A DNA stretch of 36,595 nucleotides from an uncultured Lachnospiraceae bacterium. Its GTDB lineage: Bacteria > Bacillota > Clostridia > Lachnospirales > Lachnospiraceae. The translations under genes were made by a program, and so were the position numbers. Each line of letters opens with the position of its first letter. Positions within the stretch are counted from its first letter, which is position 1. A model generated the notes under the pieces. The model was not told where the DNA came from. It ran no database searches and worked only from the letters and a program-made list of their open reading frames with translations. The stretch lies in NCBI GenBank assembly GCA_944380185.1, contig CALWGV010000088.1, positions 1 to 36,595 of the forward strand. Reading direction: 5' to 3'. Positions 5,561-32,615 of this stretch are shown in pieces.

Positions 5561-6187
5561 TCACTGCATTCTGGGAAAGGTGATCATCTCGGAAGCATAG
5601 GGAAGGCCTTCGATGGCATGGCAGAAGGTGTGCCATTCCTCCAGCTTGTGATCCCGGCGGGCGTGATAGATATTGATCAGGTTTTCGTAGTTCAGTGTGC
5701 AGGTCCGCAGCTGATTGTAGCTGGAGGGGAGCAGCTGGATCATATCGTACCACAGCGCTTTGTCTTTAGTCTCCAGGTAGCTGAGGCGTACCTGTTCGAG
5801 ATAGGCTATATAATCTTTAAAATGGTCCAGGGCTTCCGGCGTCATGTGGTCGTGGCTGAAATCCTCCAGCGAAAACGGCCGGCTGTGGATCTTGTGCATG
5901 GTGGAACAGGAGTTGGCTACGGTGCCCACTTTGTAGGTGTCATACTCCTTCCACCAGTACAGGGGGGCCGTTACATCCATAGACACAAAGATCATCCGCA
6001 CAAATTTGCGGTGATCGCTGCCGGCCCGGCACAGGCGGGAAGCCAGACCGAGATCCTTTTCTCCCAGTATATAATTTCCGTCATCGTCGTAATGACTGTC
6101 GCTGAGATGCCAGCTGTTCATGGGATTGCGCGCGCCGCGGACGGCGTTCTCCAGATTCATCACAGATATCCGTTCTATTTTCAGCAT
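5561..6187 (-). CDS. ThyX-like protein (divergent flavin-dependent thymidylate synthase fold)
   Basis: 208-aa protein, convergent with the oxidoreductase gene and only 18 bases from it. The pattern HRKFVRMIFVSMDV, then WWKEYDTY, then KVGTVANSCSTMHK (residues 86-99), and later LLPSSYNQLRTCTLNYENLINIYHARR (152-178), follows the order of ThyX elements. The ThyX signature RHRxxSxNxxSxR is only partly kept: NxxS is present, but the arginines and first serine are not in place. It may therefore bind flavin or nucleotide without making dTMP, or do something else. AAGGAGG lies six bases before the ATG. The fold assignment is from memory of motif order and is uncertain. Confidence 0.5.
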   Translation of the reverse strand: MLKIERISVMNLENAVRGARNPMNSWHLSDSHYDDDGNYILGEKDLGLASRLCRAGSDHRKFVRMIFVSMDVTAPLYWWKEYDTYKVGTVANSCSTMHKIHSRPFSLEDFSHDHMTPEALDHFKDYIAYLEQVRLSYLETKDKALWYDMIQLLPSSYNQLRTCTLNYENLINIYHARRDHKLEEWHTFCHAIEGLPYASEMITFPRMQ

Positions 6188-6334
6188 GTGTATCCTCCTT
6201 GTCTGCTCCCTGTGGGAAGCGCACCGATTACTTGGATATTTTTTTTTATGTTAGCATGTCTTTCACCGTATCGCAAGATAAAAATTTCCGTCGGCCAAGA
6301 GACAATAAAATTTCCGGGATGAACAAGGTTTATG

Positions 6335-6421: not shown

Positions 6422-7507
6422 ATGAAAAGAAGAGTTTTTGCTTTACTGATGGCTGCCGTTATGGTTTTTGCCATGACTGCCTGCTCCGGCGGTGGAGATA
6501 CCACCACACCTGCAGCTGAGGGAACAGAGGCTGCCGGCGGTGAGACTGCTGGCGGCGAGACGACCGGCACCATCAAGGTCGGCATGGTTACTGACGTAGG
6601 CGGTATCAACGACCAGTCCTTTAACCAGCTGTCCTGGGAAGGCCTGCAGCGTGCACATGATGAGCTGGGGGTAGAGGTTACCTATCTGGAGTCTCATCAG
6701 GATTCCGAGTATGCGACCAATATTCAGACTCTGATAGATGATGAATGTGATCTGATTATCTGTGTGGGCTATATGCTGGCAGACGCAGTAAATCAGGCTG
6801 CACAGGATAACCCTGACCAGCTGTTTGCTATCATCGATGACCAGACTTACAGTGAGCTGCCCAATCTGGCCTGCCTGATGTTTGAGCAGGAGCAGGCTTC
6901 CTACCTGGTGGGAATCGTGGCCGGCATGATGACCGAGACGAACACCGTAGGCTTTGTGATTGGTCAGTCCACCGGCCCGATGAATGAGTTCGGCTACGGC
7001 TATGTGGATGGTGTGCTGTCCACCAATCCGGACGCTACGGTTCTGCAGTACAATGCCAATAACTTTGGCGATTCCGGCCTGGGCAAGACCGCTGCCAAGG
7101 ATATGGCTACCAATGGCGCCGATGTGATCTATCATGCTGCCGGCGGTACCGGACAGGGCGTTATTGAGGCCTGCCAGGAGGATGGCATCTGGGCGATCGG
7201 CGTAGACAGTGACCAGAACCATCTGGCCCCCGACACGGTTGTGACCTCCGCCATGAAGAGAGTAGATAATGCCAGCTATGACATTACCAAGGCTGTGCTG
7301 GAGGGCACTTACACCCCTGGCATACATGTTTACAGCCTGGCTGATGGCGGCGTAGACATCGCTCCCACCACGACACTTCTGCCCGATGACGTTCTGGCTG
7401 CCGTAGAGGAAGCAAAACAGGCGATTATTGACGGCGAGATCGTTGTGCCGGCTACCCAGGAAGAATTTGAGAATAAATACGGTCCCGATGTTTACCAGCT
7501 GGACTAA
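6422..7507 (+). CDS. BMP-family nucleoside-binding lipoprotein of an ABC transporter
   Basis: 361-aa extracytoplasmic substrate-binding protein. It has a lipoprotein signal (MKRRVFALLMAAVMVFAMTAC) with the lipidated cysteine at residue 21, then a Gly/Thr/Glu-rich linker to about residue 50. The Bmp/PnrA/Med-type periplasmic-binding fold follows: IKVGMVTDVGGINDQSFNQLSWEG, then GVDSDQNHLAPDTVVTSAMKRVD. PnrA of Treponema and NupN of Bacillus-type systems bind purine or pyrimidine nucleosides, and the neighbours here (cdd, pdp) support nucleosides as ligand. GGAGG lies six bases before the ATG. A strong terminator follows, separating it from the rest of the transporter, perhaps to give extra binding protein. 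Confidence 0.92.
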   Translation: MKRRVFALLMAAVMVFAMTACSGGGDTTTPAAEGTEAAGGETAGGETTGTIKVGMVTDVGGINDQSFNQLSWEGLQRAHDELGVEVTYLESHQDSEYATNIQTLIDDECDLIICVGYMLADAVNQAAQDNPDQLFAIIDDQTYSELPNLACLMFEQEQASYLVGIVAGMMTETNTVGFVIGQSTGPMNEFGYGYVDGVLSTNPDATVLQYNANNFGDSGLGKTAAKDMATNGADVIYHAAGGTGQGVIEACQEDGIWAIGVDSDQNHLAPDTVVTSAMKRVDNASYDITKAVLEGTYTPGIHVYSLADGGVDIAPTTTLLPDDVLAAVEEAKQAIIDGEIVVPATQEEFENKYGPDVYQLD

Positions 7508-7551
7508 AGATTAAAGATCATTCATTATTAAAAGAGATGTAAAATTCTTAA

Positions 7552-7577
7552 AAGCCGCCGGGGCCCGGCGGCTTTTT
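7552..7577 (+). terminator. Intrinsic terminator after the BMP lipoprotein gene
   Basis: AAGCCGCCG at 7552-7560 pairs perfectly with CGGCGGCTT at 7566-7574 around a 5-base loop. A run of five T follows (7573-7577). Confidence 0.9.
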
Positions 7578-7647
7578 CGTGAGATCTTTTAGGTGACAAA
7601 ATCACATTTTTTGAAAAGTTACGGTAGAATTTTTTGAATGCAACAGT

Positions 7648-7653
7648 TATAAT
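7648..7653 (+). promoter_or_regulatory. Probable -10 box for yjjI
   Basis: TATAAT lies 84 bases before the yjjI ATG and downstream of the lipoprotein terminator. The expected -35 position (TAGAAT at 7625-7630) is a weak match, so an activator may be needed. Confidence 0.35.
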
Positions 7654-7736
7654 AGAGTTGGATATTATCATACAGTTTGCAGCCGGCCCGATGGCTGTGG
7701 CTGCCTATAGAAAATAAATAGAAAGGAGACTGCTGT

Positions 7737-9281
7737 ATGAGACCAATCAGCATGGACAGGGTGGAGACTGTCCGTCAGGAGATTTATAATACGATCACGA
7801 GCCTGACCATGACCCATGAGCAGAAGCTGACTGCTCTAGCCAATCATGCCGACTCTTTGATGGAGGTGCTGGATGTCCCGGAGGGACTGGATGAGCTGTT
7901 GAATGTCCCCATCGAGAAAAAATGTATCTGTGATCTGAATGAGGGTCATGCTCCGGTGCGCCCCCGCTACATAGTTCCGGATTATGCCAAATTCATGCGC
8001 GAGGGATGCAAGTTCTTGAGACTGGATCCGCCCAAGGATCTGGCCGAAGCACTGAATTCTCTGCTGATTTTCTACAAGCATGTGCCTAGCGTTACCAACT
8101 ATCCGGTGTTTATCGGTAATCTGGATCAGTTGATCGAGCCTTTCCTGGATGGGGTGGATGATGAGACGGCGCTGAAAGCCATTCGGATGTTCCTGATGCA
8201 TGTGGACCGCACCATTGTGGATTCCTTCTGCCATGCGGATATCGGGCCGGTTCCGACCCGCGCGGGCATGCTGATTATGAAGGCGGAGTCCGAACTGGAG
8301 GATGCCACGCCCAATCTGACCATGCGCTATGATCCCGATGTTACCAGCGATGAGTATGCGCTGGCAGGCGTGGACTGTGCCCTGCACTGCGCAAAGCCCA
8401 GCTTTGCCAATGACAAGATGTTCCGCTCTGAGCTTGGCGATAATTATGCCATTGCCAGCTGCTATAATGGACTGCTGATTGGCGGAGGGTCCTTTACGCT
8501 GTGCCGCCTGCTGCTAAACCATATTGCAGATCGGGCAGACAGCATCGAGCAGTTCAAGAATGAGACGCTTCCCTATGTGCTGGATATCATGGCTCGCTAT
8601 ATGGATGCCAGAATCAAGTTTATTGTGGAGGAGAGCAATTTCTTCGAATACAATTTCCTGGCCAAGGAGGGCTTTATCGACAAGGATAAGTTCACGGCCA
8701 TGTACGGCCTGGTCGGTCTTGCCGAGTGCGTCAATACTCTCTTTGCGAAGGAGGGCAAGGAAGGACGGTTCGGCCACAGCGAGGAGGCTGTCCAGCTGGG
8801 CGTGGAGATCATGGACATTATTGATAACTTCAATAAAAATCATGTAAATCCTTACTGCAAGGGGACAAACGGTCACTTCCTGCTTCACGCGCAGGTAGGT
8901 CTGGCGGATGACATTCAGACCAGCCCCGGCACCCGCATCCCGATCGGTGAGGAACCAGCCGAGCTGATCGATCATCTGCGGGTCCTGGAGAGATTCCATA
9001 AATATTTTCCTTCGGGCACGGGAGATATCTTCCCCATTGATCTGACGGTGCACAACAACCCTCAGTATGTCCTGGATATCGTCAAGGGTAGCTTCAAGGA
9101 GGGTATCCGCTATCTGTCCTTCTACCGCAGTGACAGCGATGTAATTCGCGTCACCGGCTATCTGGTGAAGAGATCGGAGATGGAGAAGCTGGACCGTGGA
9201 GAGGCAGTGCTTCAGAATACTACGGGTCTGGGCCTGGGTGCGTCGAAGAACTGCAAGATTTTGGAGCGGAAGGTACGCTGA
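7737..9281 (+). CDS. yjjI: YjjI-family glycyl radical enzyme
   Basis: 514-aa cytosolic radical enzyme, the usual family length. The C-terminal glycyl radical motif is RVTGY, with the radical Gly at residue 474 (codon 9156-9158). The likely thiyl-radical cysteine is Cys242 in ASCYNGLLIGGGSF. The next gene, two bases on, encodes the matching activase YjjW, as expected for a glycyl radical pair. The substrate of YjjI is not known to me. In E. coli yjjI-yjjW lies next to deoCABD, and here it precedes a nucleoside transporter, cytidine deaminase and pyrimidine-nucleoside phosphorylase, so a role in (deoxy)nucleoside or pentose breakdown is inferred. AAGGAG lies upstream of the ATG. Oxygen-sensitive by class, in keeping with an anaerobe. 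Confidence 0.9.
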   Translation: MRPISMDRVETVRQEIYNTITSLTMTHEQKLTALANHADSLMEVLDVPEGLDELLNVPIEKKCICDLNEGHAPVRPRYIVPDYAKFMREGCKFLRLDPPKDLAEALNSLLIFYKHVPSVTNYPVFIGNLDQLIEPFLDGVDDETALKAIRMFLMHVDRTIVDSFCHADIGPVPTRAGMLIMKAESELEDATPNLTMRYDPDVTSDEYALAGVDCALHCAKPSFANDKMFRSELGDNYAIASCYNGLLIGGGSFTLCRLLLNHIADRADSIEQFKNETLPYVLDIMARYMDARIKFIVEESNFFEYNFLAKEGFIDKDKFTAMYGLVGLAECVNTLFAKEGKEGRFGHSEEAVQLGVEIMDIIDNFNKNHVNPYCKGTNGHFLLHAQVGLADDIQTSPGTRIPIGEEPAELIDHLRVLERFHKYFPSGTGDIFPIDLTVHNNPQYVLDIVKGSFKEGIRYLSFYRSDSDVIRVTGYLVKRSEMEKLDRGEAVLQNTTGLGLGASKNCKILERKVR

Positions 9282-9282
9282 G

Positions 9283-10194
9283 ATGGCAACGGAAGCACTG
9301 GTGAATAAAATTATTCCCTTCAGTTCGGTGGACGGTCCGGGTAACCGGACCGCCATCTTCCTGCAAGGCTGTAATTTTGACTGCCTGTATTGCCATAACC
9401 CGGAGACGATCAATCTGTGCATCAGCTGCGGAGCCTGCGTAAAGGTTTGCCCCGTTCAGGCCCTTTCCTGGGTGGACAAGCCGGAGGATATGAGTCGTGT
9501 TCATCACAGTGACGGAGACTGGCAGGCGAAGAATCGTCTTCACCAGGGGTACGTGGCCTATGATGTTGAGAAATGTGTCCTTTGCGATGCCTGTATTAAG
9601 ACCTGCCCCCATGGCAGTTCTCCCCGCATCCGTCATATGACGGCGGAGCAGGTGATGGAGGCGGTGCGCCGTCAGATTCCTTATATTCGGGGAATTACCG
9701 TTTCCGGAGGGGAATGTACGAGGCAGAGAGATTTTCTGGCAGAGCTCTTCAGCCTGGCGAGGAAGGAGGGACTTGATTGTCTGCTGGACAGCAACGGTAC
9801 TCTTGATTTCTCACAGGATCCGGAGCTTATGGAGGTGACCGACGGGGTTATGCTCGACATCAAGGCCTTTGGAGCACAGGATCACCGGATGATCACAGGC
9901 AGGGATAATACCCGGGTATTGGCCCAGGCGAGATATCTGGCAGGCATAGGGAAGCTTCCGGAGGTGCGCACAGTGATTGTGCCGGGACTTTTCAATGGTG
10001 AGGAGACAGTGAGGCGGACGGCGCAGATGCTGGAGCCGTATCTGGAGATCGCGCCGATCCGCTATAAGCTGATCAAATACCGGCCCATGGGCGTGCGCAG
10101 ACAATATGCCCTGTATCAGACACCGGATGATGCATACATGGGAAAGCTAAAGGAGATGGTTATCGCTCTGGGATTTGACGCAGTTATCGCTTAG
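9283..10194 (+). CDS. yjjW: YjjW-family glycyl radical enzyme activase (radical SAM)
   Basis: 303-aa radical SAM protein that would use S-adenosylmethionine and a [4Fe-4S] cluster to make the glycyl radical on YjjI. The N-terminus has the activase motif CNFDCLYC (Cys30, 34, 37). A ferredoxin-like insert with two cluster motifs follows: CISCGACVKVC (46-56) and CVLCDACIKTC (98-108). Then comes the SAM-contact segment GITVSGGE. The frame extends upstream into yjjI, but the ATG at 9283, one base after the yjjI stop, starts at the conserved N-terminus and is preceded by a purine-rich GGAAGG. The tight spacing points to co-translation with yjjI. Confidence 0.92.
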   Translation: MATEALVNKIIPFSSVDGPGNRTAIFLQGCNFDCLYCHNPETINLCISCGACVKVCPVQALSWVDKPEDMSRVHHSDGDWQAKNRLHQGYVAYDVEKCVLCDACIKTCPHGSSPRIRHMTAEQVMEAVRRQIPYIRGITVSGGECTRQRDFLAELFSLARKEGLDCLLDSNGTLDFSQDPELMEVTDGVMLDIKAFGAQDHRMITGRDNTRVLAQARYLAGIGKLPEVRTVIVPGLFNGEETVRRTAQMLEPYLEIAPIRYKLIKYRPMGVRRQYALYQTPDDAYMGKLKEMVIALGFDAVIA

Positions 10195-10241
10195 AGGTGT
10201 ACGGCAGCATGTCTGCCGGAAAATAATAGGAGGAAGGTTTA

Positions 10242-11786
10242 TTGGCAAGAGAACGGTCAGTGGACTTAGATACGAAAGTCATTGAGATGAAGGATATCGT
10301 CAAAAAGTTTGGCGATTTCGTGGCCAATGATCACATCAATCTAACCGTCCATAAAGGAGAAATCCACGCAATTCTGGGAGAGAACGGAGCAGGAAAAAGT
10401 ACACTGATGAACGTGTTGTATGGTCTGTATCGTCCCACTTCAGGTGAGATTTATGTAAACGGAAAACGGGAGGACATCGATGGTCCCAGCAAGGCCATCC
10501 AGTGCGGAATTGGCATGGTTCATCAGCACTTTATGCTGGTACAGCCCTTTACCGTCACGGAGAACATTGTGCTGGGGATGGAGCCGATGAAGGGCATTAC
10601 TCTCGACATGGCCAAGGCCAGACAGGATGTGGTTGAGCTGTCCCAGCGCTACGGCATGGCAGTGGACCCGGACGCCCGGATTGAAGATATTTCCGTGGGT
10701 ATGCAGCAGAGAGTGGAGATTCTGAAGGTATTGTTCCGCGGCGCTCAGACTTTAATTCTGGATGAGCCGACGGCTTCGCTGACGCCTCAGGAAATCACAG
10801 AATTGATTCACATCATGGAAAAGCTGACGGCGGATGGCAAGTCCATTATTCTGATTACGCACAAGCTGAAGGAGATCAAGGCTGCCGCCGACTACTGCAC
10901 GATCATTCGTCTGGGCAAATACATTGACACCGTAAAGGTGTCCGATGTGACGGAGCAGGATCTGGCCAGCATGATGGTAGGACGAAATGTCACCTTCACA
11001 GTGGAGAAGGAAGAAAAAGAGCCCGGCGAGGTGGTTTTGGAGGTAAAGAATCTGCGCGGCAGAGATTACCGCAAGGTAGAGATCCTGAAAGGTCTGAATC
11101 TCAATGTGCGCCGGGGAGAAATCCTGGGCATAGCCGGTATCGACGGCAATGGTCAAACCGAGCTGGTGGAGATCATTACCGGTCTGCGCAAGGCGGAGGG
11201 CGGTTCCATTATGATCAACGGTGAGAATATCTTCAATGCAAAGCCCCGCACCATCTTTGAAAGGGGTGTATCCAGCATCCCGGCTGACCGGCAGAAGCAT
11301 GGACTGGTTTTGGATTTTACGGTAGCAGAAAACATGGTGCTTCAGAATTACCGCAGCCCTCAGTTCCAGCAGTATGGATTCCTGAAAAAAGACGCTATTC
11401 GCAAGTATGCGCAGGATGCGGTGAAAAAATATGATATTCGTCCGGCGGATGCGGCAGACCGGCCGGCGGGAACCCTTTCCGGCGGCAATCAGCAGAAAGT
11501 TATTGTTGCCCGGGAGGTGAATAACGACAAGGATTTGCTGATCGCGGTAAATCCCACCCGAGGGCTGGATGTGGGGGCGATTGAGTATGTACATCGCTAT
11601 ATAGTGGAACAGAGAAACAAGGGCAAGGCGGTTTTGTTAGTTTCCTTTGAGCTGGACGAAATTATGAGTCTTTCCGATCGGATTGATGTAATCTATGACG
11701 GCAAGATCGTGGGTTCTATGGCGGGCAAGGATGCCGATGAGAACACTCTTGGCTTGATGATGGCAGGAGGTACGCACCATGAGTAA
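10242..11786 (+). CDS. Nucleoside ABC transporter ATPase with two ABC domains (NupO/YufO-like)
   Basis: 514-aa cytosolic ATPase that would power nucleoside import through the two following permeases. The first ABC domain is canonical: Walker A GENGAGKST at 46-54, signature region ISVGMQQRVEI, and Walker B LILDEPTASLTP. The second domain has the degenerate features usual in this family: GIDGNGQTE in place of Walker A, and AVNPTRGLD without the catalytic Glu, but an intact LSGGNQQK signature. The start is TTG, with AGGAGG at 10228-10233, eight bases upstream. The 3' end overlaps the first permease by 8 bases. It follows yjjW by 47 bases with no terminator, so yjjI-yjjW and the transporter are probably one operon. 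Confidence 0.93.
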   Translation: MARERSVDLDTKVIEMKDIVKKFGDFVANDHINLTVHKGEIHAILGENGAGKSTLMNVLYGLYRPTSGEIYVNGKREDIDGPSKAIQCGIGMVHQHFMLVQPFTVTENIVLGMEPMKGITLDMAKARQDVVELSQRYGMAVDPDARIEDISVGMQQRVEILKVLFRGAQTLILDEPTASLTPQEITELIHIMEKLTADGKSIILITHKLKEIKAAADYCTIIRLGKYIDTVKVSDVTEQDLASMMVGRNVTFTVEKEEKEPGEVVLEVKNLRGRDYRKVEILKGLNLNVRRGEILGIAGIDGNGQTELVEIITGLRKAEGGSIMINGENIFNAKPRTIFERGVSSIPADRQKHGLVLDFTVAENMVLQNYRSPQFQQYGFLKKDAIRKYAQDAVKKYDIRPADAADRPAGTLSGGNQQKVIVAREVNNDKDLLIAVNPTRGLDVGAIEYVHRYIVEQRNKGKAVLLVSFELDEIMSLSDRIDVIYDGKIVGSMAGKDADENTLGLMMAGGTHHE

Positions 11787-12837
11787 AAATAAGAGCATTT
11801 TTCAGAGCCATATATTTCTCACCGTGGTGGCTGTTATCGTAGCATTTTTGGTGGGAGCCATATTCTTGGGCATCATGGGCTATAATCCCATCACGGTATA
11901 TACCACTCTGATCACCGGTATTTTCAGCCGCCCCCGGTATATAGCTTATTCGGTCGTATATGCCACTCCCCTGATTTTTGTGGGACTGTCCGTTGCCTTC
12001 TCTTTTAAAACGGGTGTCTTCAACATTGGCGCGGAGGGACAGTTTGTCGTGGGCAGCATGGCGGCATGTCTGGTTGGCATTTTTGTAGATGCTCCGCCGA
12101 TTATTCATGTGCCGCTGTGTTTTCTGGCTGCAGCGGTGGCTGGCGCCGTATGGGGAATTATTGTCGGTTTCCTGAAGGTAAAGTGGGGAATCAACGAAGT
12201 GCTGTCCATGATCATGTTTAACTGGATTGCATTCTACCTTTCCAACTATATTGTAGAGTTTCCTGCCGTTCACAGCGAAGGCACTGCGGAAGCGACGAAA
12301 AATGTCGCGGATACGGCAAGAATTCTTCTGCCGGCTGGCCTTAGAGACGTGCTGGCGCCTACCTCCAACTATGGTATTCTGATTGCCCTTGTATTTGTGG
12401 TGATTGTCTATTTAATCATCGAGAAAACTACTCTGGGCTATGAAATGAAGGCGGTGGGCTACAACAAAAATGCGGCGGAATATGCCGGTATCGGAGTGAA
12501 CAAAGCGATCCTTACGGCAATGGCCATATCCGGGGCGCTGGCCGGAATGGGAGGCGCAGTGCAGCTTTTGGGAATGGGACAGCGTATCAGTCTGTTCTCC
12601 GGTCAGGAAGGGTTTGGCTTTGAGGGAATCAGCGTGGCGCTGATCGGCGCTTCCAACCCCATCGGCGTATTCTTCAGCGGTCTGTTCTATGGGGCGCTGA
12701 AGTACGGCGGCAGTAAGTTAAACCTGATACAGGCGCCGTCGGAGATTGTGGATGTAATCACGGGTACTATCGTGTTCTTTATCGCCATCTCCCATGTATT
12801 CAAAGTGGTGCGCAGGAAAAAGAAGGAGGTTAGCTGA
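11779..12837 (+). CDS. Nucleoside ABC transporter permease, subunit 1 (NupP/YufP-like)
   Basis: 352-aa integral membrane protein of the BPD type-2 permease family, with about eight to ten hydrophobic helices. The family segment FKTGVFNIGAEGQFVVGS near residues 77-94 and the later GYEMKAVGYNKNAAEYAGI coupling region are present, as in RbsC-like and YufP-like subunits. It overlaps the ATPase gene by 8 bases and has GCAGGAGG upstream. It pairs with the next permease as a heterodimer. Substrate inferred from the BMP lipoprotein and salvage genes. Confidence 0.92.
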   Translation: MSKNKSIFQSHIFLTVVAVIVAFLVGAIFLGIMGYNPITVYTTLITGIFSRPRYIAYSVVYATPLIFVGLSVAFSFKTGVFNIGAEGQFVVGSMAACLVGIFVDAPPIIHVPLCFLAAAVAGAVWGIIVGFLKVKWGINEVLSMIMFNWIAFYLSNYIVEFPAVHSEGTAEATKNVADTARILLPAGLRDVLAPTSNYGILIALVFVVIVYLIIEKTTLGYEMKAVGYNKNAAEYAGIGVNKAILTAMAISGALAGMGGAVQLLGMGQRISLFSGQEGFGFEGISVALIGASNPIGVFFSGLFYGALKYGGSKLNLIQAPSEIVDVITGTIVFFIAISHVFKVVRRKKKEVS

Positions 12838-12839
12838 TT

Positions 12840-13781
12840 ATGGATTCAATTATTAACAGTCTGGGGACATTGATCTATGCAACCCTGATTTACACGCCTC
12901 CGCTTGTATTTGCGGCCATGGGTTCCTGTTTTTCGGAAAATAGCGGTGTTGTCAACATCGGCATCGAAGGAACAATGACGATCGGAGCTTTTACAGGAGC
13001 GGCTGTAGCTTATTTTACCGGAAACGCCTGGGTGGGCTTTTTGTGCGCAGGTCTTGCGGGAGCAGCTTTTGGTCTGCTTCACGCGATAGCCACGGTATCG
13101 CTGAATGCCGACCAGACGATCACCGGCACAGCCATTAATTTCCTGGCTCCTGGCGTTGCCCTTTTGATTTCCAAGGCATTATTTAATTCGTCGGATACAC
13201 CGGCATTGATTGACAGCAAGCTGCCGATGCTTTTTAATGGTGTTTTTGACGGGAATTCCGCGTGGTCACGGTTCTTCCGCAATATTTTTAACAACTACGC
13301 AACGTCGTTTCTGATGTTTGCCCTAGTTCTGCTGGTATGGTTTATTTTCTACAAGACGCGATTTGGGCTGCGGCTGCGTGCCGTGGGCGAACATCCGCGT
13401 GCCTGCGATACCCTGGGCATCAATGTGCAGAGAACACGTTATATTGCGGTAATTATTTCTGATTTTCTGGCTGGTCTGGGCGGCGCCTGCGTGACCATGG
13501 CGATTATGAACCAGTTCCGTCCGATCTCTATCGTAGGTCAGGGCTTTATCGCCATCGCGGCGGTTATCTTTGGCAAGTTTCGTCCTCAGGGAGCGCTGGT
13601 TGCCTGCCTGCTGTTTGGCTTCTGCACCGGGCTGAAGGTGGTTATGGGTTCCAACAATGTGATTTCGGCGCAGCTGATTTCCATGATTCCTTACGTGGTG
13701 ACGGTGATTGTGCTGATCCTCTTTGTGGGACGCTCCCGTACTCCTTCCGCCAACGGCAAGCCTTATGTGAAATCCAGATAA
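12840..13781 (+). CDS. Nucleoside ABC transporter permease, subunit 2 (NupQ/YufQ-like)
   Basis: 313-aa membrane protein, second half of the permease heterodimer. The segment SENSGVVNIGIEGTMTIGAF is the same loop as in the partner subunit, and RFGLRLRAVGEHPRACDTLGI is the coupling region that contacts the ATPase. It starts two bases after the previous stop, with AAGGAGG upstream. A perfect hairpin follows in the gap before cdd. Confidence 0.92.
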   Translation: MDSIINSLGTLIYATLIYTPPLVFAAMGSCFSENSGVVNIGIEGTMTIGAFTGAAVAYFTGNAWVGFLCAGLAGAAFGLLHAIATVSLNADQTITGTAINFLAPGVALLISKALFNSSDTPALIDSKLPMLFNGVFDGNSAWSRFFRNIFNNYATSFLMFALVLLVWFIFYKTRFGLRLRAVGEHPRACDTLGINVQRTRYIAVIISDFLAGLGGACVTMAIMNQFRPISIVGQGFIAIAAVIFGKFRPQGALVACLLFGFCTGLKVVMGSNNVISAQLISMIPYVVTVIVLILFVGRSRTPSANGKPYVKSR

Positions 13782-13810
13782 TACAGTGGAAATATAGTCA
13801 ATGGCAATAT

Positions 13811-13835
13811 GACCGCCGGCCATCGTCCGGCGGTC
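13811..13835 (+). repeat. Perfect inverted repeat between permease and cdd
   Basis: GACCGCCGG at 13811-13819 and CCGGCGGTC at 13827-13835 form a 9-bp stem with a 7-base loop. No T run follows, so it is more likely an mRNA-stabilising, partial-stop or binding element than a standard terminator. The rest of the gap holds the cdd ribosome binding site. Confidence 0.5.
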
Positions 13836-13896
13836 GGCCTGTCTAAAGAGGCAGAATCGCGAAAACGATCTGTCTGAGATAAGGAGGTTTTTATTT

Positions 13897-14319
13897 ATGG
13901 AAAAAAGAGCAGGAGACAGCGCATTGATCCGTGAGGCGATACAGGCGCGGGAGAATGCCTATACGCCCTATTCCCATTTCCGTGTGGGAGCGGCCCTGCG
14001 CACCGCAGAGGGAAAGGTTTACCGCGGTTGCAATATTGAAAACGCCGGCTACACGCCCAGCAACTGCGCGGAACGGACGGCTATTTTCAAGGCGGTCAGC
14101 GAGGGGGAGAGAAACTTTGATACCATAGCCATCGTGGCCGGCAAGGAGGGGGAGGAGCTGGTGCCCCCGACTCCCTGCGGGGTCTGCGGCCAGGTGATGA
14201 TGGAATTCTGCGACCCGGAGACCTTCCGTATTCTTCTGGCCACCTCGCCGGAGGAGTACGAGGTGTGGACGCTGGCAAAAATTCTTCCTCTTGGCTTTGG
14301 CCCCAAGGATCTTCTGTGA
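13897..14319 (+). CDS. cdd: Cytidine deaminase
   Basis: 140-aa zinc enzyme that deaminates cytidine and deoxycytidine to uridine and deoxyuridine. The zinc and catalytic motif CAE (Cys57-Ala-Glu59, in NCAERTAIF) and PCGVC (Cys94, Cys97) are intact. The length fits the small tetrameric bacterial type. AAGGAGG lies upstream of the ATG. It stops 17 bases before pdp, so imported cytidine can flow straight into phosphorolysis as uridine. Confidence 0.96.
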   Translation: MEKRAGDSALIREAIQARENAYTPYSHFRVGAALRTAEGKVYRGCNIENAGYTPSNCAERTAIFKAVSEGERNFDTIAIVAGKEGEELVPPTPCGVCGQVMMEFCDPETFRILLATSPEEYEVWTLAKILPLGFGPKDLL

Positions 14320-14336
14320 GCGGGAGGTGACAGAAT

Positions 14337-15668
14337 ATGCGCATGTATGATCTGATTATGAAGAAACGGGACGGAGGGGTTCTGTCGGCCGAGGAAATCC
14401 GTTTTATGATTGACGGCTATGTAAAGGGAGAGATTCCGGATTATCAGATGTCCGCCATGTGCATGGCCATATGGTTTCGCGGGATGACCGATGAAGAGAC
14501 CGGAGAGATGACCCTGTGCATGGCGGCCTCCGGCGATCAGATGGATTTGTCCGGTATAGAGGGGGTCAAGGTGGATAAGCATAGCACCGGCGGGGTAGGC
14601 GACAAGACAACGCTGGTGCTGGGACCCATTGTGGCGGCCTGCGGCGGCAAGGTAGCCAAGATGTCGGGGCGCGGTTTAGGCCATACCGGAGGCACTCTGG
14701 ATAAGCTGGAATCCATCCCGGGCCTGTCGGTGGCCATAGAACCGGAGAAATTTATTAAGCAGGTCAATGAAATTGGTCTGTGTGTGGCAGGGCAGACCGG
14801 AAATCTGGTGCCGGCGGACAAAAAACTGTATGCCCTGCGGGACGTGACGGCCACAGTGGACAGTATTCCGCTGATTGCCGCTTCGATTATGAGCAAGAAG
14901 CTGGCGTCGGGCAGCGACGCCATCGTGCTGGATGTGAAGACCGGCAGCGGCGCTTTCATGAAGACGCTGGAGGATTCCATCCTGCTGGCGCAGAAAATGG
15001 TGGCCATCGGCACCCATGCAGGACGGCGGACGATAGCCCTGATTACCGATATGGATACGCCGTTAGGCCACTACGTGGGCAATGCACTGGAGGTGCAGGA
15101 GGCAGCGGCTACGCTGAAGGGAGAGGGGCCGGAGGACCTGACGGAGGTCTGTCTGATTCTGGCGGCCAATATGCTGGAACTGTCAGGCAAGGGAAGTTAT
15201 GAGGAATGCCTGGCCATGGCAAAACAGGCAATCGCCGACGGCAGCGCCTTCAAAAAACTCCATGCTATGGTAAAGGCCCAGGGCGGAGACGACCGCGTCC
15301 TGGACGATCCTGCGCTTTTTGGAACGGCCGCCTATGTGGAAGAACTGAAAGCCCCGGCCTCCGGTTATGTGCAGCACATCGATACCGAGGGCTGCGGCAT
15401 CGCTGCGGCTATGCTGGGAGCCGGCCGTGAAAAGAAGGAGGATTCCATCGATATGCTGGCGGGGCTTTATCTGGCAAAGAAAGAGGGGGATCCGGTGCAG
15501 GAAGGAGAAACCCTCGCCCGGCTCTACACCAATGAAAAAGAAAAGATGGGGGACGCGATGGAAAAGCTTCTGTCCTGCTATCGGATCGGAGCAGAGAGGC
15601 CGCACACACTTCCTCTGATTCTGGCGAAGGTGACCAAGAATGGCGCAGAGCGCTACGACGGCAAATAA
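14337..15668 (+). CDS. pdp: Pyrimidine-nucleoside phosphorylase
   Basis: 443-aa cytosolic enzyme that splits uridine, deoxyuridine or thymidine with phosphate to the base and (deoxy)ribose-1-phosphate. The family signature SGRGLGHTGGTLDKLESIPG and the phosphate-binding KHSTGGVGDK are intact, followed by the C-terminal PYNP domain. Length and sequence fit the Firmicute Pdp type rather than a thymidine-only enzyme. GGGAGG lies nine bases before the ATG; a second ATG two codons later is possible. No deoB, deoC or deoD is seen in the window. The operon appears to end at the large hairpin at 15705-15752. Confidence 0.94.
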   Translation: MRMYDLIMKKRDGGVLSAEEIRFMIDGYVKGEIPDYQMSAMCMAIWFRGMTDEETGEMTLCMAASGDQMDLSGIEGVKVDKHSTGGVGDKTTLVLGPIVAACGGKVAKMSGRGLGHTGGTLDKLESIPGLSVAIEPEKFIKQVNEIGLCVAGQTGNLVPADKKLYALRDVTATVDSIPLIAASIMSKKLASGSDAIVLDVKTGSGAFMKTLEDSILLAQKMVAIGTHAGRRTIALITDMDTPLGHYVGNALEVQEAAATLKGEGPEDLTEVCLILAANMLELSGKGSYEECLAMAKQAIADGSAFKKLHAMVKAQGGDDRVLDDPALFGTAAYVEELKAPASGYVQHIDTEGCGIAAAMLGAGREKKEDSIDMLAGLYLAKKEGDPVQEGETLARLYTNEKEKMGDAMEKLLSCYRIGAERPHTLPLILAKVTKNGAERYDGK

Positions 15669-15704
15669 AAAATAAAAATAGCAAGCTGGGCTGAACAGGA
15701 TAAG

Positions 15705-15752
15705 CTCCTCTCTCATAGTCTGTAGTATCGGACTGTGAGAGAGGAGTTTTTT
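15705..15752 (+). terminator. Large intrinsic terminator whose stem contains the next gene's ribosome binding site
   Basis: Bases 15705-15720 pair with 15731-15746 along 16 bp with one U-G wobble, around a 10-base loop. TTTTTT follows at 15747-15752, and the amidase ATG is the very next base. The right arm carries GAGAGGAG, the only ribosome binding site for that gene. Confidence 0.88.
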
Positions 15753-17409: not shown

Positions 17410-17445
17410 ATAGGCGCTAGATGGAACGAAAGGGCGGTGATGGAG

Positions 17446-17871
17446 ATGTTCGTAGGCGAATACAATCATTCCCTTGACAGCAAAGGACGCCTGATCATTC
17501 CGTCCCGGTTCCGTGAGGCGCTGGGGGACACTTTTATGGTGACAAAGGGCCTGGATGGCTGTCTCTCCATCTATGATATGGAGGGATGGAAAAATCTGGA
17601 GTCCAAGCTTCAGGCTCTGCCTCTTACCAATGCCAATGCCCGTAAGTTCACCCGTTTCATGCTGGGCGGGGCCATCGAGTGTGAGGTGGACAAGCAGGGG
17701 AGAATTTTGATACCCGCCAATCTTCGGGAGTTTGCCCATCTGACCAAGGATGTCGCCCTGGTAGGCGTAGGCGGCCGGATAGAAATCTGGGATAAGGAGA
17801 CCTGGGTACAGGTCAGCGCTTACGACGATATGGAAGAGATCGCAGAAAACATGGAAGGACTGGGAATCTGA
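17446..17871 (+). CDS. mraZ: Transcriptional regulator MraZ
   Basis: 141-aa DNA-binding protein with two AbrB-like repeats: [21 protein letters not shown] at the start, and a second with [22 protein letters not shown]. The DxKGR and DxQGR motifs are intact. In-frame GTG and ATG codons lie 9 and 6 bases upstream. The ATG at 17446 is chosen because MraZ proteins begin MFxGEY and the AAGGGCGGTGAT ribosome binding site ends five bases before it. It is the first gene of the division/wall cluster, just behind its own presumed operator, and it overlaps rsmH by one base. Confidence 0.93.
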
Positions 17872-18806
17872 TGGAATTTGTACACAAGCCGGTATTGCTG
17901 AAAGAAGCCATAGATGCGCTGGCGGTCCGGGAGGATGGAATCTATGTGGACGGCACTCTGGGCGGCGGCGGACATTCCTATGAGATTGCCAGCAGACTGG
18001 GCTCAAATGGACGCCTGATCGGTATCGATCAGGATGAAGCGGCGATCAGAGCTGCGGGAGAACGGCTGTCCTGCTTTGAGGGACGGGTCACGATCATCCG
18101 TGACAATTATGTGAATTTTCCTCAGATAATGGACAGGCTGGGCATAGAGAAAGTGGATGGAATACTTCTGGATATCGGGGTTTCCTCCTATCAGATCGAC
18201 ACGGCAGACAGGGGCTTTTCTTACATGGAGGATGCTCCTCTGGACATGAGAATGGACCAGAGAAATACTCTGACAGCCAAGAAAATTGTAAATGAATATA
18301 CACAAGAAGCTCTCTATCGCCTGATTCACAATTACGGCGAAGATCCCTTTGCCAAGAGCATTGCCGCCCATATTGTGCGGGCCAGGCAGAAAGAGCCGAT
18401 CGAGACCACAGGCCAGCTGGCGGACATTATCCGCGGCTCCGTTCCGGCCAAGGTCAGAAACGGTGGCAGCAACCCCGCAAAGAGAACGTTTCAGGCCCTG
18501 CGCATCGAGTGCAACAGAGAGCTGGCGGTGCTTGAGGAGTCCATCGACGGGATGATCGCCCGTTTAAACAGCGGCGGAAGGCTGGCCATCATCACATTCC
18601 ATTCTCTGGAGGATCGGATTGTAAAGAATAAGTTCCGCGAGAATGAGAATCCGTGCATCTGCCCGCCGAATTTTCCGGTGTGTGTCTGCGGCAGGAAAAG
18701 TCGGGGTCATGTAGTTACGCGCAAGCCGGTGATCCCATCGCCGCAAGAACAGAGAGATAATAAGAGAGCAACCAGCGCAAAGCTTCGAGTATTCGAACAT
18801 ATCTGA
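17871..18806 (+). CDS. rsmH: 16S rRNA (cytosine(1402)-N(4))-methyltransferase
   Basis: 311-aa SAM-dependent methyltransferase acting on C1402 in the decoding centre of 16S rRNA. It begins [13 protein letters not shown], has the SAM-binding motif [28 protein letters not shown], and the conserved [16 protein letters not shown] and [12 protein letters not shown] segments. Length is typical. The ATG shares its first base with the mraZ stop codon (TGATG), so translation is coupled. Confidence 0.97.
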
Positions 18807-18843
18807 CCGCCGCAGGCGGCCGGAGGGAAGGAGAGGTGACGTC

Positions 18844-19353
18844 ATGGCAGGAAGAGAGAATCGCTACGATGATTCACGGCAAAACAGAAGAAGAGCGACG
18901 GAAGCCTATACAGAAGGAAATACGGTCCGGGTAATGCGGCCTGAGGAAATGCCCTCCCGAAGAGAAAAGACCTACAGGGATGAGCAGGAAGAGCAGAGGC
19001 GGAAGGCGCGTATACGCCGGAACAGGGACAAAGCTCTGCAGATGAGTCCTTCCTTTGTCCTGTTTGTATCGCTGGCGGCAGTCTGCGTTCTGTTTGTCTG
19101 CGTTCGCTATATGAGGGTGCAGACATCCATCGTCTCTACGATGAACGCCATAGAAGAGGCGGAGGCGCAGCTGGAGGAGATCAAGGCGGACAACGACCTT
19201 TTGGCGGCTCAGATCCGCACCAATGTGGACCTGGATGAGATTTACCGGGTGGCCACAGAGGAACTCGGCATGGTGCGCCCCAATGACGATCAGATCCTTT
19301 ATTATGACAAGACGGAAAGTGAGTACGTGAGACAATATGAGAGCATCCCGTGA
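18844..19353 (+). CDS. ftsL: Cell division protein FtsL-like
   Basis: 169-aa single-pass membrane protein: a basic, disordered cytoplasmic region (1-66), one membrane helix (about 69-89), then a heptad-like coiled coil (about 96-130) followed by a short tail with the ELGMVRPND segment common to Firmicute FtsL/DivIC-type proteins. It would bind DivIB and DivIC and activate the septal synthase. The cytoplasmic part is long for the family. Identity rests on architecture and position between rsmH and a PBP gene. It overlaps the next gene by 17 bases. AGGAGAGGTGA lies upstream of the ATG. Confidence 0.82.
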   Translation: MAGRENRYDDSRQNRRRATEAYTEGNTVRVMRPEEMPSRREKTYRDEQEEQRRKARIRRNRDKALQMSPSFVLFVSLAAVCVLFVCVRYMRVQTSIVSTMNAIEEAEAQLEEIKADNDLLAAQIRTNVDLDEIYRVATEELGMVRPNDDQILYYDKTESEYVRQYESIP

Positions 19354-21448
19354 GAAAAACGGCGGGAGGCCCGCCGCAAAGAAGAATGACAATCAAAAGA
19401 AGAGGCCCTTTGCCCGGTATATGCGCAAGAAACTGGCATTCACCGCAGGGATTGTGGCCCTTCTTTTATTTGTATTGATGATAAGACTGCAGGCCATTGG
19501 CCGGGAAAACAACGAAGAATATCAGAGAATCGTCTATTCGCAGCAGAACTATGAGAGCAGAACCATTGCCTTTCGCCGCGGAGATATTCTGGATCGAAAC
19601 GGAACGGTCCTGGCAACTACGACCAAACTCTACAATCTGATTTTGGATCCCTATATTATGACCACCGAAGATGACGGAGCGCATGTGGAGGCTACTCTCA
19701 ATGCTCTGGCCGAGTGCTACGGATATGATGTGGACGACTTGACTGAACGGATCTATGCCAATACGGAGAGCCGCTATGTGATCTATGCCAGAGAACTGAC
19801 GGAAGAGGAGATGAACCTTTTCCTGGACAAGAAGTCGGAGCTGGCAGAAGAGGGCAGTGAGGTGGTCGGCGTCTGGTTTGAGACAAAATACAAGAGAATC
19901 TATCCTTACAATGACCTGGCCTGCTGGGTTTTAGGTTTTTCCCGGGATGACAGCTCGGTGGGCAGCTATGGCATAGAACAGTATTATAACGATGAGCTGG
20001 TGGGAGTTAATGGCAGAGAATACGGTTATTTAAACGATGAAAGCAATATGGAGCGGGTGATCAAATCGGCTCAGGACGGCAATACCATCGTGACCACCAT
20101 CGACGTGACGATCCAGCAGATCGTTCAGGAGAAGATCGCCGAGGCGCAGCAGGAGCTTCAGGCTGCCAACATCGGTGTGATTGCCATGGACCCGGATAAC
20201 GGCGAAATATTGGCCATGGCGGGAGACGCAGCATTTGACTGTAATAATCCTTCTGACACATCTGCACTCCTGTCCCGCTATACGCAGGAACAGCTCGATG
20301 CCATGAGCCAGGAGGAGCAGACGACAGCTCTGGCGGAGCTGTGGAAGAATTTCTGCATCTCCTACACCTATGAGCCCGGATCCACGGCAAAGGTATTTAC
20401 GGTGGCGGCTGCTCTGGAAGAGGCGAAGGTTACGTCGGCGGATACCTTTGACTGTGATGGCGGAGAGTATGTGGGGGGCTGGCGCATCAACTGCAATGAT
20501 GTCCACGGCCATCAGACGCTGACGGAGACGCTGATGAACTCCTGCAACGATGCGCTGATGAATATCGCCGCCAGATTAGGAGCGGAGGAGATTCTGCACT
20601 ATCAGTCGGTTTTTGGCTTCGGCAGCAGAACCGGAGTGGATTTGCCGGGTGAGGAGAGCGGACTTTTGCAGACCATGGATACCATGGATGTGTCGGCTGT
20701 GGCCACCAACGGCTTCGGCCAAAACTATAATATAACAATGATTCAGCAGATCGCCGCCTATTGTTCTGTTGTAAATGGCGGGACTTATTATGAGCCTCAT
20801 GTGGTACGGCAGATCAAGAACAGTGATGGAGCTGTGGTGAAAGAGGGCGATTCCGTGGAAGTGCGTCAGACGGTCAGCGCCGATACTTCCGAATATCTGA
20901 AGGAAGCTCTGTTCGATGTGGTGGACATCGGCACCGGCGGCAATGCCCGCATCGCCGGCTATGAGGTGGGCGGCAAGACCGGCACGGCGGAGAAACAGCC
21001 CCGCGATAAGGAGAATTATCTGCTGTCCTTCATCGGCGGCGTACCGGCATCGGACCCGGAGATTGTTCTCTATGTGGTGGTGGACTCTCCGGCGGGAGTG
21101 GAGAATCAGGCGCAGAGCCGTCATGCCTCAACCCTGTGGAGAAATATTATGGAAGAAATCCTTCCCTATCTTAATATCTACCCCACCAGAGAGGTGGAGA
21201 GTGAGACTGAGCCGGAGACTGCGACAGATAATACGGGGACTGAGCCGGAGACGGACGCTGCCGGAAATCCGGTGGCGACTGAGCCGGAAACCGAACCGGA
21301 AACGGCTAACAACGTATCCGACGACTCCTATGAGAATGGTATATTCGGGGATCCCAATGCGGAGAGCACGGAATCTCAGGAGAACACAGAAGAAAGCAGT
21401 GAGGAAGGTGCCCCGTCCGAAGGGGATGCGCCGGAGAACGCAGGCTGA
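19337..21448 (+). CDS. Class B penicillin-binding protein (FtsI/SpoVD-like) with acidic C-terminal tail
   Basis: 703-aa peptidoglycan transpeptidase. Short cytoplasmic part, one membrane helix (about 33-50), the PBP dimerisation domain with RRGDILDRNGTVLA, then the transpeptidase domain with intact motifs SxxK (Ser349-Lys352, in EPGSTAK), SxN (Ser402-Cys-Asn404) and KTG (547-549). No PASTA domain is seen. Residues about 621-703 form an outside tail rich in Glu, Thr, Pro and Ser, with repeated TEPET units. The first 17 bases overlap ftsL. It is one of two tandem class B PBPs; in Bacillus the pair is pbpB and spoVD, but I cannot say which this is. Confidence 0.9.
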   Translation: MRASREKNGGRPAAKKNDNQKKRPFARYMRKKLAFTAGIVALLLFVLMIRLQAIGRENNEEYQRIVYSQQNYESRTIAFRRGDILDRNGTVLATTTKLYNLILDPYIMTTEDDGAHVEATLNALAECYGYDVDDLTERIYANTESRYVIYARELTEEEMNLFLDKKSELAEEGSEVVGVWFETKYKRIYPYNDLACWVLGFSRDDSSVGSYGIEQYYNDELVGVNGREYGYLNDESNMERVIKSAQDGNTIVTTIDVTIQQIVQEKIAEAQQELQAANIGVIAMDPDNGEILAMAGDAAFDCNNPSDTSALLSRYTQEQLDAMSQEEQTTALAELWKNFCISYTYEPGSTAKVFTVAAALEEAKVTSADTFDCDGGEYVGGWRINCNDVHGHQTLTETLMNSCNDALMNIAARLGAEEILHYQSVFGFGSRTGVDLPGEESGLLQTMDTMDVSAVATNGFGQNYNITMIQQIAAYCSVVNGGTYYEPHVVRQIKNSDGAVVKEGDSVEVRQTVSADTSEYLKEALFDVVDIGTGGNARIAGYEVGGKTGTAEKQPRDKENYLLSFIGGVPASDPEIVLYVVVDSPAGVENQAQSRHASTLWRNIMEEILPYLNIYPTREVESETEPETATDNTGTEPETDAAGNPVATEPETEPETANNVSDDSYENGIFGDPNAESTESQENTEESSEEGAPSEGDAPENAG

Positions 21449-21470
21449 TCTTGCGCTCATATTTTTCCGA

Positions 21471-21504
21471 GCCTGACCATATACTGTAAGGATAACAGTC
21501 AGGC
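21471..21504 (+). repeat. Intercistronic hairpin next to the second PBP ribosome binding site
   Basis: GCCTGAC at 21471-21477 pairs with GTCAGGC at 21498-21504. The right arm runs into AGGCGGTGGG, the ribosome binding site of the gene starting at 21513, so folding could lower its translation. No T run follows. Confidence 0.4.
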
Positions 21505-21512
21505 GGTGGGCA

Positions 21513-23273: not shown

Positions 23274-23333
23274 TTCTTCCGGGGGAAGAGCGTATACTTT
23301 GTGAAGACAAAAGAGTGTGGGAGGTATTCTCTT

Positions 23334-24290: not shown

Positions 24291-24347
24291 ACAGACACAG
24301 GCGCAGTGCCTATGGGCAGGCGAGCTTTTTCGCCGGGGAGGATGAAG

Positions 24348-25706: not shown

Positions 25707-25736
25707 CTGACAGGATATATGTTGAAGGAGACTGAT

Positions 25737-26891: not shown

Positions 26892-26941
26892 CAATCCGTC
26901 ATACATAGGATAATAGTAGAATACAGTATGGAGGGAATGAA

Positions 26942-28222: not shown

Positions 28223-28236
28223 TATAAGGAGGACGT

Positions 28237-29067: not shown

Positions 29068-29138
29068 CAGGAATAAAGGACCGATTTCCAAAAAAGGCAT
29101 TAAATGGAAGACTGCAGGGAAAAAGTAAAAACTTTGTC

Positions 29139-29167
29139 TTGCACTTTTCCCGAAAATAGAATATGAT
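29139..29167 (+). promoter_or_regulatory. Internal promoter for ftsZ
   Basis: TTGCAC at 29139-29144, a 17-base spacer, then TATGAT at 29162-29167. Start expected near 29174, giving a leader of about 107 bases. Confidence 0.65.
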
Positions 29168-29222
29168 TGTATCGTGCATCCAAAGATAAAATAGAGGGAA
29201 CTAGGACGAGACGGACGGGATT

Positions 29223-29251
29223 TACTGATTCGTCTAATCGTTTTATCAGTA
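29223..29251 (+). repeat. Inverted repeat in the ftsZ leader
   Basis: TACTGAT at 29223-29229 and ATCAGTA at 29245-29251 form a 7-bp stem with a 15-base loop, ending 11 bases before the AGGAGG ribosome binding site of ftsZ. Confidence 0.4.
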
Positions 29252-29280
29252 GGATAGATGGCAGGAGGAGAATTATTGGT

Positions 29281-30423: not shown

Positions 30424-30439
30424 ACAGCTGTTATCTATT

Positions 30440-30488
30440 GAGGAAGGACTTAGGCGAAAGCAAATGCTTTCGCAGCCCTTCCTCTTTT
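30440..30488 (+). terminator. Terminator after ftsZ
   Basis: The outer stem is GAGGAAGG at 30440-30447 with CCTTCCTC at 30477-30484. An inner hairpin is GCGAAAGCA at 30454-30462 with TGCTTTCGC at 30465-30473. TTTT follows. It lies between convergent genes and may act on both strands. Confidence 0.8.
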
Positions 30489-30529
30489 GCGGTAAAAGAA
30501 GCGAAGAGGTCCCGGCGGAAGAACTCTAT

Positions 30530-31789: not shown

Positions 31790-31869
31790 GAGATACAATC
31801 CTTCGGATCTGTGTCAATAACATCTTATGGAGTTTGTGAGCGAAAAATTCGAGAGAGGAAGGTGATTTT

Positions 31870-32586: not shown

Positions 32587-32615
32587 ACCATCTCCGGATA
32601 ACGAAAGGCAGCTTA

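What the first reader, a model, noticed from the sequence alone, without database searches (positions are those of the whole stretch)
6422..15668. Orphan glycyl radical enzyme YjjI/YjjW embedded in a nucleoside uptake and cleavage operon
Seen: yjjI (radical Gly474, Cys242) and yjjW are followed, with no terminator, by a two-domain ABC ATPase, two permeases, cdd and pdp, and preceded by a BMP nucleoside-binding lipoprotein. Known: in E. coli yjjI-yjjW adjoins deoCABD, also nucleoside catabolism. The same association in two distant phyla with different neighbour genes suggests that YjjI acts on a (deoxy)nucleoside, a pentose or deoxyribose derivative, or a pyrimidine product. No deoB/deoC is seen here, so a radical route for (deoxy)ribose-phosphate or base handling is conceivable. 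This is the best candidate for an undescribed pathway in the window.
Basis: partly seen in the sequence, partly recalled or inferred. Interest (0 to 1): 0.85.

Follow-up and report, generated by a model that had tools for sequence, protein, structure and literature searches.

The report
Radical enzyme inside nucleoside-uptake operon
A gut-type bacterium carries YjjI, a presumably oxygen-sensitive radical enzyme of unknown function, and its activating partner YjjW in the middle of an operon for taking up and breaking down nucleosides (DNA and RNA building blocks), and related genomes suggest, without proving it, that the enzyme works on nucleosides or their sugars.

The parts
6422..7507 (+). 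BMP/PnrA-type substrate-binding lipoprotein of a probable nucleoside ABC importer
   Evidence: PF02608 247.7 bits; best PDB chain 7x0r 'Lbp' 434.7 bits, then PnrA-type chains; guanosine fitted in Lbp density (PMC9601137 passages)
7550..7577 (+). terminator-like hairpin between the BMP gene and yjjI (8-bp GC stem, T-run)
   Evidence: read; fold and comparison of 45 loci
7737..9281 (+). yjjI, glycyl radical enzyme (Gly474 radical site, Cys242 thiyl site, by family and alignment)
   Evidence: TIGR04040 689 bits, PF11230 735.4 bits; both residues invariant in 70 of 70; model pLDDT 94.9
9283..10194 (+). yjjW, radical SAM activase with ferredoxin-type 4Fe-4S matches
   Evidence: TIGR04041 350.3 bits, cut-off 250.2; Radical_SAM and Fer4; CNFDCLYC
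10242..11786 (+). two-domain ABC ATPase of the importer
   Evidence: PF00005, 2 stretches; NF047930 458.9 bits, below its cut-off of 670
11779..12837 (+). importer permease 1
   Evidence: PF02653 147.8 bits
12840..13781 (+). importer permease 2
   Evidence: PF02653 148.8 bits
13897..14319 (+). cdd, cytidine deaminase
   Evidence: TIGR01354 135.7 bits, cut-off 113.65
14337..15668 (+). pdp, pyrimidine-nucleoside phosphorylase
   Evidence: NF004747 589.6 bits, cut-off 559
15703..15748 (+). terminator-like site after pdp (it overlaps the first bases of the next ORF as listed, 15735)
   Evidence: 20-pair stem with T tail

Best explanation
The operon is an anaerobic nucleoside scavenging unit. The BMP lipoprotein and its ABC transporter import nucleosides (inferred from family and neighbours); Cdd and Pdp turn pyrimidine nucleosides into bases and (deoxy)ribose-1-phosphate (established activities of these families). 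YjjW, using SAM and its iron-sulfur clusters, makes a radical on Gly474 of YjjI; this moves to Cys242, whose thiyl radical takes a hydrogen from the substrate (inferred from invariant residues, family and fold). The substrate is most likely the sugar part of an imported nucleoside: the nucleoside itself, or the (deoxy)ribose phosphate released from it, with an elimination or bond cleavage that yields a compound usable in fermentation. The companion enzymes vary (cytidine deaminase, adenosine deaminase, purine or uridine phosphorylase, DeoC, DeoB, uridine kinase) while importer and YjjIW mostly stay together, which points to something common to all nucleosides, the sugar, rather than to one base. 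The reaction itself is not determined.
For: Operon BMP-yjjI-yjjW-ABC-perm-perm in the window's clade. Within 10 kb of yjjI in 102 non-redundant loci: BMP 38, Cdd 21, PNP/Udp 20, DeoC 17, ADA 13, DeoB 11, PDP 7, UDK 5. BMP beside yjjI in 4 of 20 families outside the own one in two even draws (P 6e-4, or 6e-3 with every genome as a chance); without the family whose YjjI fall in the window's clade, 3 of 19 (P 6e-3, or 0.036). Different arrangements in L077/L078/L080, L070/L072/L171/L216 and L088. Two genomes of the window's genus carry two YjjI (about 47% identical), each copy with a BMP importer within 10 kb. E. coli and Salmonella yjjI is divergent from deoCABD. Fold nearest to NrdD, which attacks the ribose of nucleotides. 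20 polar or reactive residues are invariant in 70 YjjI, including E. coli and Chloroflexota, suggesting one substrate for the family. E. coli yjjI is marked FNR-activated in PMC2634741 and listed in the FNR table of PMC3688515 (passages).
Against: 52 of 63 non-redundant loci outside the window's clade show none of the scored genes within 10 kb, though 14 have a short flank and 3 carry importer-type permeases. In a clade of 17 Clostridium-type rows one has a scored gene, a uridine kinase. None of the six spirochaete loci has BMP or a scored enzyme; one has importer-type permeases. No deo genes beside yjjI in Proteus, Vibrio or Aeromonas; none annotated in the Haliovirga or Chloroflexota stretches, the latter having a ribokinase about 9 kb away. 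An earlier family count was not significant (2 of 22, P 0.07). An ordinary route (Pdp, DeoB, DeoC) exists in the genome, so no gap needs filling. A bicluster study placed yjjI with nitrate genes and proposed a nitrogen role (PMC3228777 passages). Gene neighbourhood does not name a reaction.
Confidence: 0.48

Rival explanations
1. YjjI is a general anaerobic enzyme whose substrate has nothing to do with nucleosides; in some clades its two-gene unit was inserted into nucleoside operons and kept there by descent.
For: yjjIW without nucleoside genes in many families; Crp/FNR-type regulator genes beside yjjI in L081, L083, L155, L171, L176, L189; association concentrated in one clade; bicluster with nitrate genes (PMC3228777 passages); with every genome as a chance the family count is only moderately unlikely (P 6e-3 and 0.036).
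Against: The same importer type beside yjjI in several different arrangements and beside both paralogues of two genomes.
Confidence: 0.29
2. YjjI acts downstream of the aldolase step, for example on acetaldehyde or another product of deoxyribose-phosphate cleavage.
For: DeoC is within 10 kb in 17 of 102 loci; in L088 yjjIW is followed by an MtnA-type isomerase and a class II aldolase, which resembles the recalled 5-deoxyribose salvage route that also gives acetaldehyde.
Against: In the window DeoC is not in the operon; no acetaldehyde dehydrogenase was seen among the neighbour proteins scanned, although an aldo/keto reductase and a 2-hydroxyacid dehydrogenase-type gene occur near yjjI in a few loci.
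Confidence: 0.1
3. YjjI is a compact reductase of ribonucleosides or ribose phosphates that makes the 2-deoxy form, feeding the deo pathway or DNA synthesis.
For: NrdD-like fold and glycyl loop RxTGYL; link to nucleoside import, phosphorylases and DeoC.
Against: No ATP-cone match and no counterpart of NrdD's C-terminal cysteine site; the thiyl loop SCYN aligns with PFL's CCVS, while the NrdD profile gave no clean match there; no thioredoxin or formate gene was recognised among the neighbours scanned.
Confidence: 0.08
4. YjjI acts on the nucleobase, for example in purine or pyrimidine ring breakdown.
For: A gene cluster member identified in L093 as xanthine phosphoribosyltransferase follows yjjW in L090, L092 and L093; Cdd and ADA among neighbours.
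Against: Purine and pyrimidine companions alternate freely, which a base-specific enzyme would not predict; DeoC and DeoB are sugar enzymes.
Confidence: 0.05

Closest known systems
YjjI family glycine radical enzyme (TIGR04040, PF11230; DUF3029 in RefSeq's E. coli product name) with activase YjjW (TIGR04041)
   Same: Full-length matches above curated cut-offs; same invariant residues
   Different: The family model carries no reaction; here it sits inside a nucleoside ABC operon, not divergent from deo as in E. coli
[quoted passage not shown]
   Different: YjjI has 514 aa against 670-803 in the NrdD ORFs compared (some cut at locus ends); no ATP-cone match, no C-terminal cysteine site
Pyruvate formate-lyase and GRE dehydratases/lyases (PFL, PflD, YbiW, CutC)
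   Different: SCYN in place of PFL's CCVS; no glutamate two residues after the cysteine (GCxE motif, recalled); weaker profile match, E 1e-6
PnrA/BMP nucleoside ABC importers (Lbp 7x0r, PnrA 2fqx)
   Same: Lipoprotein, two-domain ATPase, two permeases; 434.7 bits to Lbp
   Different: Genes for a radical enzyme and its activase stand between lipoprotein and ATPase genes
E. coli yjjI-yjjW / deoCABD region
   Same: yjjI-yjjW adjacent to nucleoside catabolism genes
   Different: Divergent orientation, no transporter in the stretch read; not kept in the Proteus, Vibrio and Aeromonas stretches

Membership tests
YjjI (TIGR04040/PF11230) | Full-length match above curated cut-off | tested here: met
   689 bits against 498.3; 735.4 against 23
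YjjI (TIGR04040/PF11230) | Paired YjjW activase | tested here: met
   TIGR04041 350.3 against 250.2; a yjjW-cluster gene within 8 genes in 98 of 102 non-redundant loci
Glycyl radical enzymes | Radical glycine in a C-terminal loop and a central cysteine | tested here: met
   Gly474 and Cys242 invariant in 70 of 70
Glycyl radical enzymes | Radical formed by the activase under anoxia | not testable with these tools
   needs EPR
Class III ribonucleotide reductase NrdD | Overall fold | tested here: met
Class III ribonucleotide reductase NrdD | Cysteine (zinc, recalled) site shortly before the glycyl loop | tested here: not met
   three cysteines there (C736, C746, C749) are invariant in the 10 NrdD of A4; YjjI has no residues opposite them in the profile alignment
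Class III ribonucleotide reductase NrdD | ATP-cone N-terminal domain | tested here: not met
   Pfam scan of YjjI at E 0.001 gives only YjjI-like, NRDD and PFL-like; not every NrdD has a cone (recalled)
Class III ribonucleotide reductase NrdD | Second active-site cysteine for reduction (recalled) | tested here: inconclusive
   this part of YjjI lies outside the profile alignment; Cys65 is present in 66 of 70
Pyruvate formate-lyase | Cys-Cys pair | tested here: not met
   Ser241-Cys242 in 70 of 70, aligned with PFL Cys-Cys
GRE eliminases (GCxE motif, recalled) | Glutamate two residues after the cysteine | tested here: not met
   Asn244 in 70 of 70
BMP/PnrA nucleoside importers | PF02608 lipoprotein with ATPase and two permeases | tested here: met
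BMP/PnrA nucleoside importers | Nucleoside binding by this protein | not testable with these tools
   only for the relative Lbp was guanosine fitted in density (PMC9601137 passages); 7x0r is tied to that paper by the name Lbp alone
Putative B6 ABC transporter (NF047927-NF047930) | Scores above curated cut-offs | tested here: not met
   105.9/400, 458.9/670, 144.7/400, 168.1/465

The most novel reading that the evidence does not exclude
YjjI is a compact, NrdD-related glycyl radical enzyme that opens or deoxygenates the sugar of free nucleosides or pentose phosphates: an undescribed anaerobic radical route of nucleoside catabolism shared by gut Firmicutes and enteric bacteria.
Probability: 0.39. 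Interest if true: 0.88.

Novelty: new variant of a known kind. Interest (0 to 1): 0.6.

Why it matters
In the papers seen here YjjI is an E. coli glycyl radical enzyme without an assigned reaction. Finding it built into nucleoside importers of gut bacteria, with an NrdD-like fold, narrows the substrate to a short list that one anaerobic assay could test. If true, it adds a radical step to nucleoside breakdown, an ordinary carbon source for gut bacteria.

Tried and rejected
Rejected: the argument that deoB/deoC are missing. Rejected: that the deo adjacency is general in Gammaproteobacteria. Rejected: a vitamin B6 transporter, since all four components score far below the B6 models. Not pursued, too few lineages: endonuclease III-type genes beside or near yjjI in L077, L078, L080 and L152, and pseudouridine-type genes downstream in L150, L153 and L158.

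Statistics. The first family count was not significant (2 of 22 families, P 0.07). The larger one (4 of 20) gives 6e-4 with one chance of 2% per family, but a family was scored positive if any of its genomes was, so that value is too small; with each of the 43 genomes as a separate chance it is 6e-3, and 0.036 for 3 of 19. On first drafting I gave only the smaller values; the odds of the best reading were lowered from 0.50 to 0.48 and of the novel case from 0.40 to 0.39, and the first rival was raised from 0.27 to 0.29. All these values ignore contig ends, use a mean BMP density from 42 genomes, and count f28, whose YjjI groups in the tree with L171 of another collection.

Sampling limits. The 80 loci are the best of 581 confirmed ones, so they lean to the window's kin. 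Of 15 plasmid-collection records with YjjI 5 were fetched, of 4 phage-collection records 1. 132 loci were reduced to 102 by 90% YjjI identity; L098 and L188 (short YjjI ORFs) were left out of the tree. Gene calling was my own ORF selection, so some neighbours may be missed or false; permease and ATPase labels may include related sugar importers. f1, f52 and so on are unnamed families.

Papers. Searches showed no assigned reaction for YjjI; lists were capped (40 of 66 shown), and most subscription journals are not held. Nine papers were looked at, passages only. The paper on radical-mediated glycolysis was seen only in another paper's reference list; its content is recalled, while PDB titles tie YbiW and PflD to anhydrohexitol phosphates.

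Recalled, from no call: the GCxE motif, NrdD's second cysteine and zinc, 5-deoxyribose salvage. A recalled Haemophilus neighbourhood was not used.
Full report
What is there. The window belongs to an incomplete genome (2.91 Mb, 112 contigs, 84% complete); the closest YjjI in named records are in Lachnospiraceae-titled MAGs. Between 6422 and 15668 on the + strand lie a BMP lipoprotein, yjjI, yjjW, a two-domain ABC ATPase, two permeases, cytidine deaminase and pyrimidine-nucleoside phosphorylase. One base separates the yjjI stop from the yjjW start; ATPase and first permease overlap by 8 bases; a strong terminator-like site follows pdp. A hairpin with a T-run separates the BMP gene from yjjI; of 45 loci with BMP upstream on the same strand, 17 have such a hairpin, and in the 10 closest pairs the gap is 5-54 nt with none. 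So yjjIW is built into the importer operon, and the hairpin may set a higher level of the binding protein (inference).

What the importer carries. The BMP protein's best solved relative is Lbp, 7x0r (434.7 bits), followed by PnrA-type lipoproteins. The paper on Clostridium thermocellum Lbp states that guanosine fitted its electron density and that its contacts resemble PnrA's (PMC9601137, passages only); that 7x0r is this Lbp rests on the name. The NCBIfam models for a putative B6 transporter are matched far below cut-off. A nucleoside importer is the likely reading.

Survey. 132 loci from relatives and phylum draw, genome contigs (the best 80 of 581, so leaning to the window's kin), a spirochaete draw and annotated records were reduced to 102 by 90% identity. 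Within 10 kb: BMP 38, ATPase 41, permeases 41 each, Cdd 21, PNP/Udp 20, DeoC 17, ADA 13, DeoB 11, PDP 7, UDK 5. By YjjI identity to the window: at 60% or more 33 of 39 loci have BMP or a scored nucleoside enzyme; at 50-60%, 6 of 35; below 50%, 5 of 28. The 39 are one supported clade in the tree (99*). The label BMP needs 13 changes on a tree of 117 rows, against 28-40 in 200 shuffles, so it is inherited within clades, with repeated gains or losses. Other arrangements: L077, L078, L080 (one unnamed family); L070, L072, L171, L216, which group in the tree (PNP, a YczE-like gene, BMP, ABC, permeases in the first two; BMP, ABC, permeases downstream in the others); L088, with an MtnA-type isomerase and class II aldolase; E. 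coli and Salmonella with deoCABD. G004 and G006 carry two YjjI about 47% identical, each with a BMP importer within 10 kb; the second copy of G003 lies on a contig too short to tell.

Chance. In 42 YjjI genomes there are 120 BMP matches, so a BMP within 10 kb of yjjI is expected in about 2% of loci. Outside the own family the first count gave 2 of 22 families (P 0.07). A second even draw of 391 genomes of the class gave 19 new stretches, 4 with BMP. The two draws together give 4 of 20 families outside the own one: P 6e-4 with one chance per family, 6e-3 with each of 43 genomes as a chance. Without f209, whose YjjI fall in the window's clade, it is 3 of 19: P 6e-3 or 0.036. The enrichment outside the window's clade is therefore real but moderate.

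Results against. Of 63 loci outside the window's clade 52 have no scored gene within 10 kb; 14 of the 52 have under 8 kb on one side and 3 (L068, L152, L192) carry importer-type permeases. Of 17 Clostridium-type rows one has a scored gene (uridine kinase). The six spirochaete loci, Haliovirga, a Chloroflexota plasmid, Proteus, Vibrio and Aeromonas show neither BMP nor deo genes nearby; the Chloroflexota stretch has a ribokinase about 9 kb away. In Proteus yjjI stands beside ytjB and serB without deo genes, so the E. coli adjacency was gained or has been lost. A bicluster study tied yjjI to nitrate metabolism (PMC3228777 passages). E. coli yjjI is marked FNR-activated in PMC2634741 and listed in the FNR table of PMC3688515 (passages), and yjjI and yjjW appear in a table of an anaerobic transcriptome of Yersinia intermedia (PMC3792023 passage); this fits an anaerobic enzyme of any substrate.

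DeoC (221 aa; 75.7 bits) and DeoB (485.5 bits over a cut-off of 341.2) are on other contigs. The ordinary route from pyrimidine nucleosides to glyceraldehyde phosphate is thus present, and YjjI need not replace it.

Judgement. The link to nucleosides is real but patchy. Because many residues are invariant from Chloroflexota to E. coli, one substrate for the whole family is plausible, and then the linked clades inform on all. Companion enzymes alternate between purine and pyrimidine, deoxy and ribo, so the shared item is the sugar. I put 0.48 on a radical step on the sugar part of nucleosides, 0.29 on an unrelated anaerobic function, and the rest on downstream, reductase or base variants.

Noticed in passing
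window 5561-6187 (-): A gene conserved in the genus (79-89% identity in kin), opposite in strand to the + ORF 5618-6322, matches phage family phrog_6721 (unknown function, E 5.6e-70); the + ORF is less conserved and probably a shadow.
   Followed up: partly
window 17437-33884: Downstream lies a division and cell-wall cluster (mraZ, rsmH, ftsL, two SpoVD-like penicillin-binding proteins, a Mur ligase, an ftsW-type gene, a weak ftsQ match), then a carbamoyl-phosphate synthase small chain; ordinary.
   Followed up: partly
window 34096-35472 (-) and 35599-36315 (-): Two minus-strand ORFs without a Pfam match at E 0.01; whether they are genes was not tested.
   Followed up: no
L077:11008-11676, L080:11125-11766, L152:6318-7079: Genes of one cluster (the L080 member matches endonuclease III, TIGR01083) lie next to yjjI or yjjW in two distant lineages, overlapping by 4 bases in L080 and L152.
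   Followed up: partly
L090:11890-12462, L092:6818-7390, L093:7977-8552: A gene of one cluster (xanthine phosphoribosyltransferase by the L093 member) follows yjjW within 3-14 bases.
   Followed up: partly
L088:5437-8331: yjjIW is followed by an MtnA-type isomerase, a class II aldolase and a sugar-binding regulator, then a BMP importer; possibly a 5-deoxyribose salvage cluster.
   Followed up: partly
L104:15963-16595: A YczE-like membrane protein (71.3 bits, cut-off 205) recurs in nucleoside clusters of two YjjI clades.
   Followed up: no
L188:10001-11551: The Aeromonas YjjI match spans about 510 aa, but the ORF called there has 363 aa; a break in the gene or an error in that record was not examined.
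   Followed up: no
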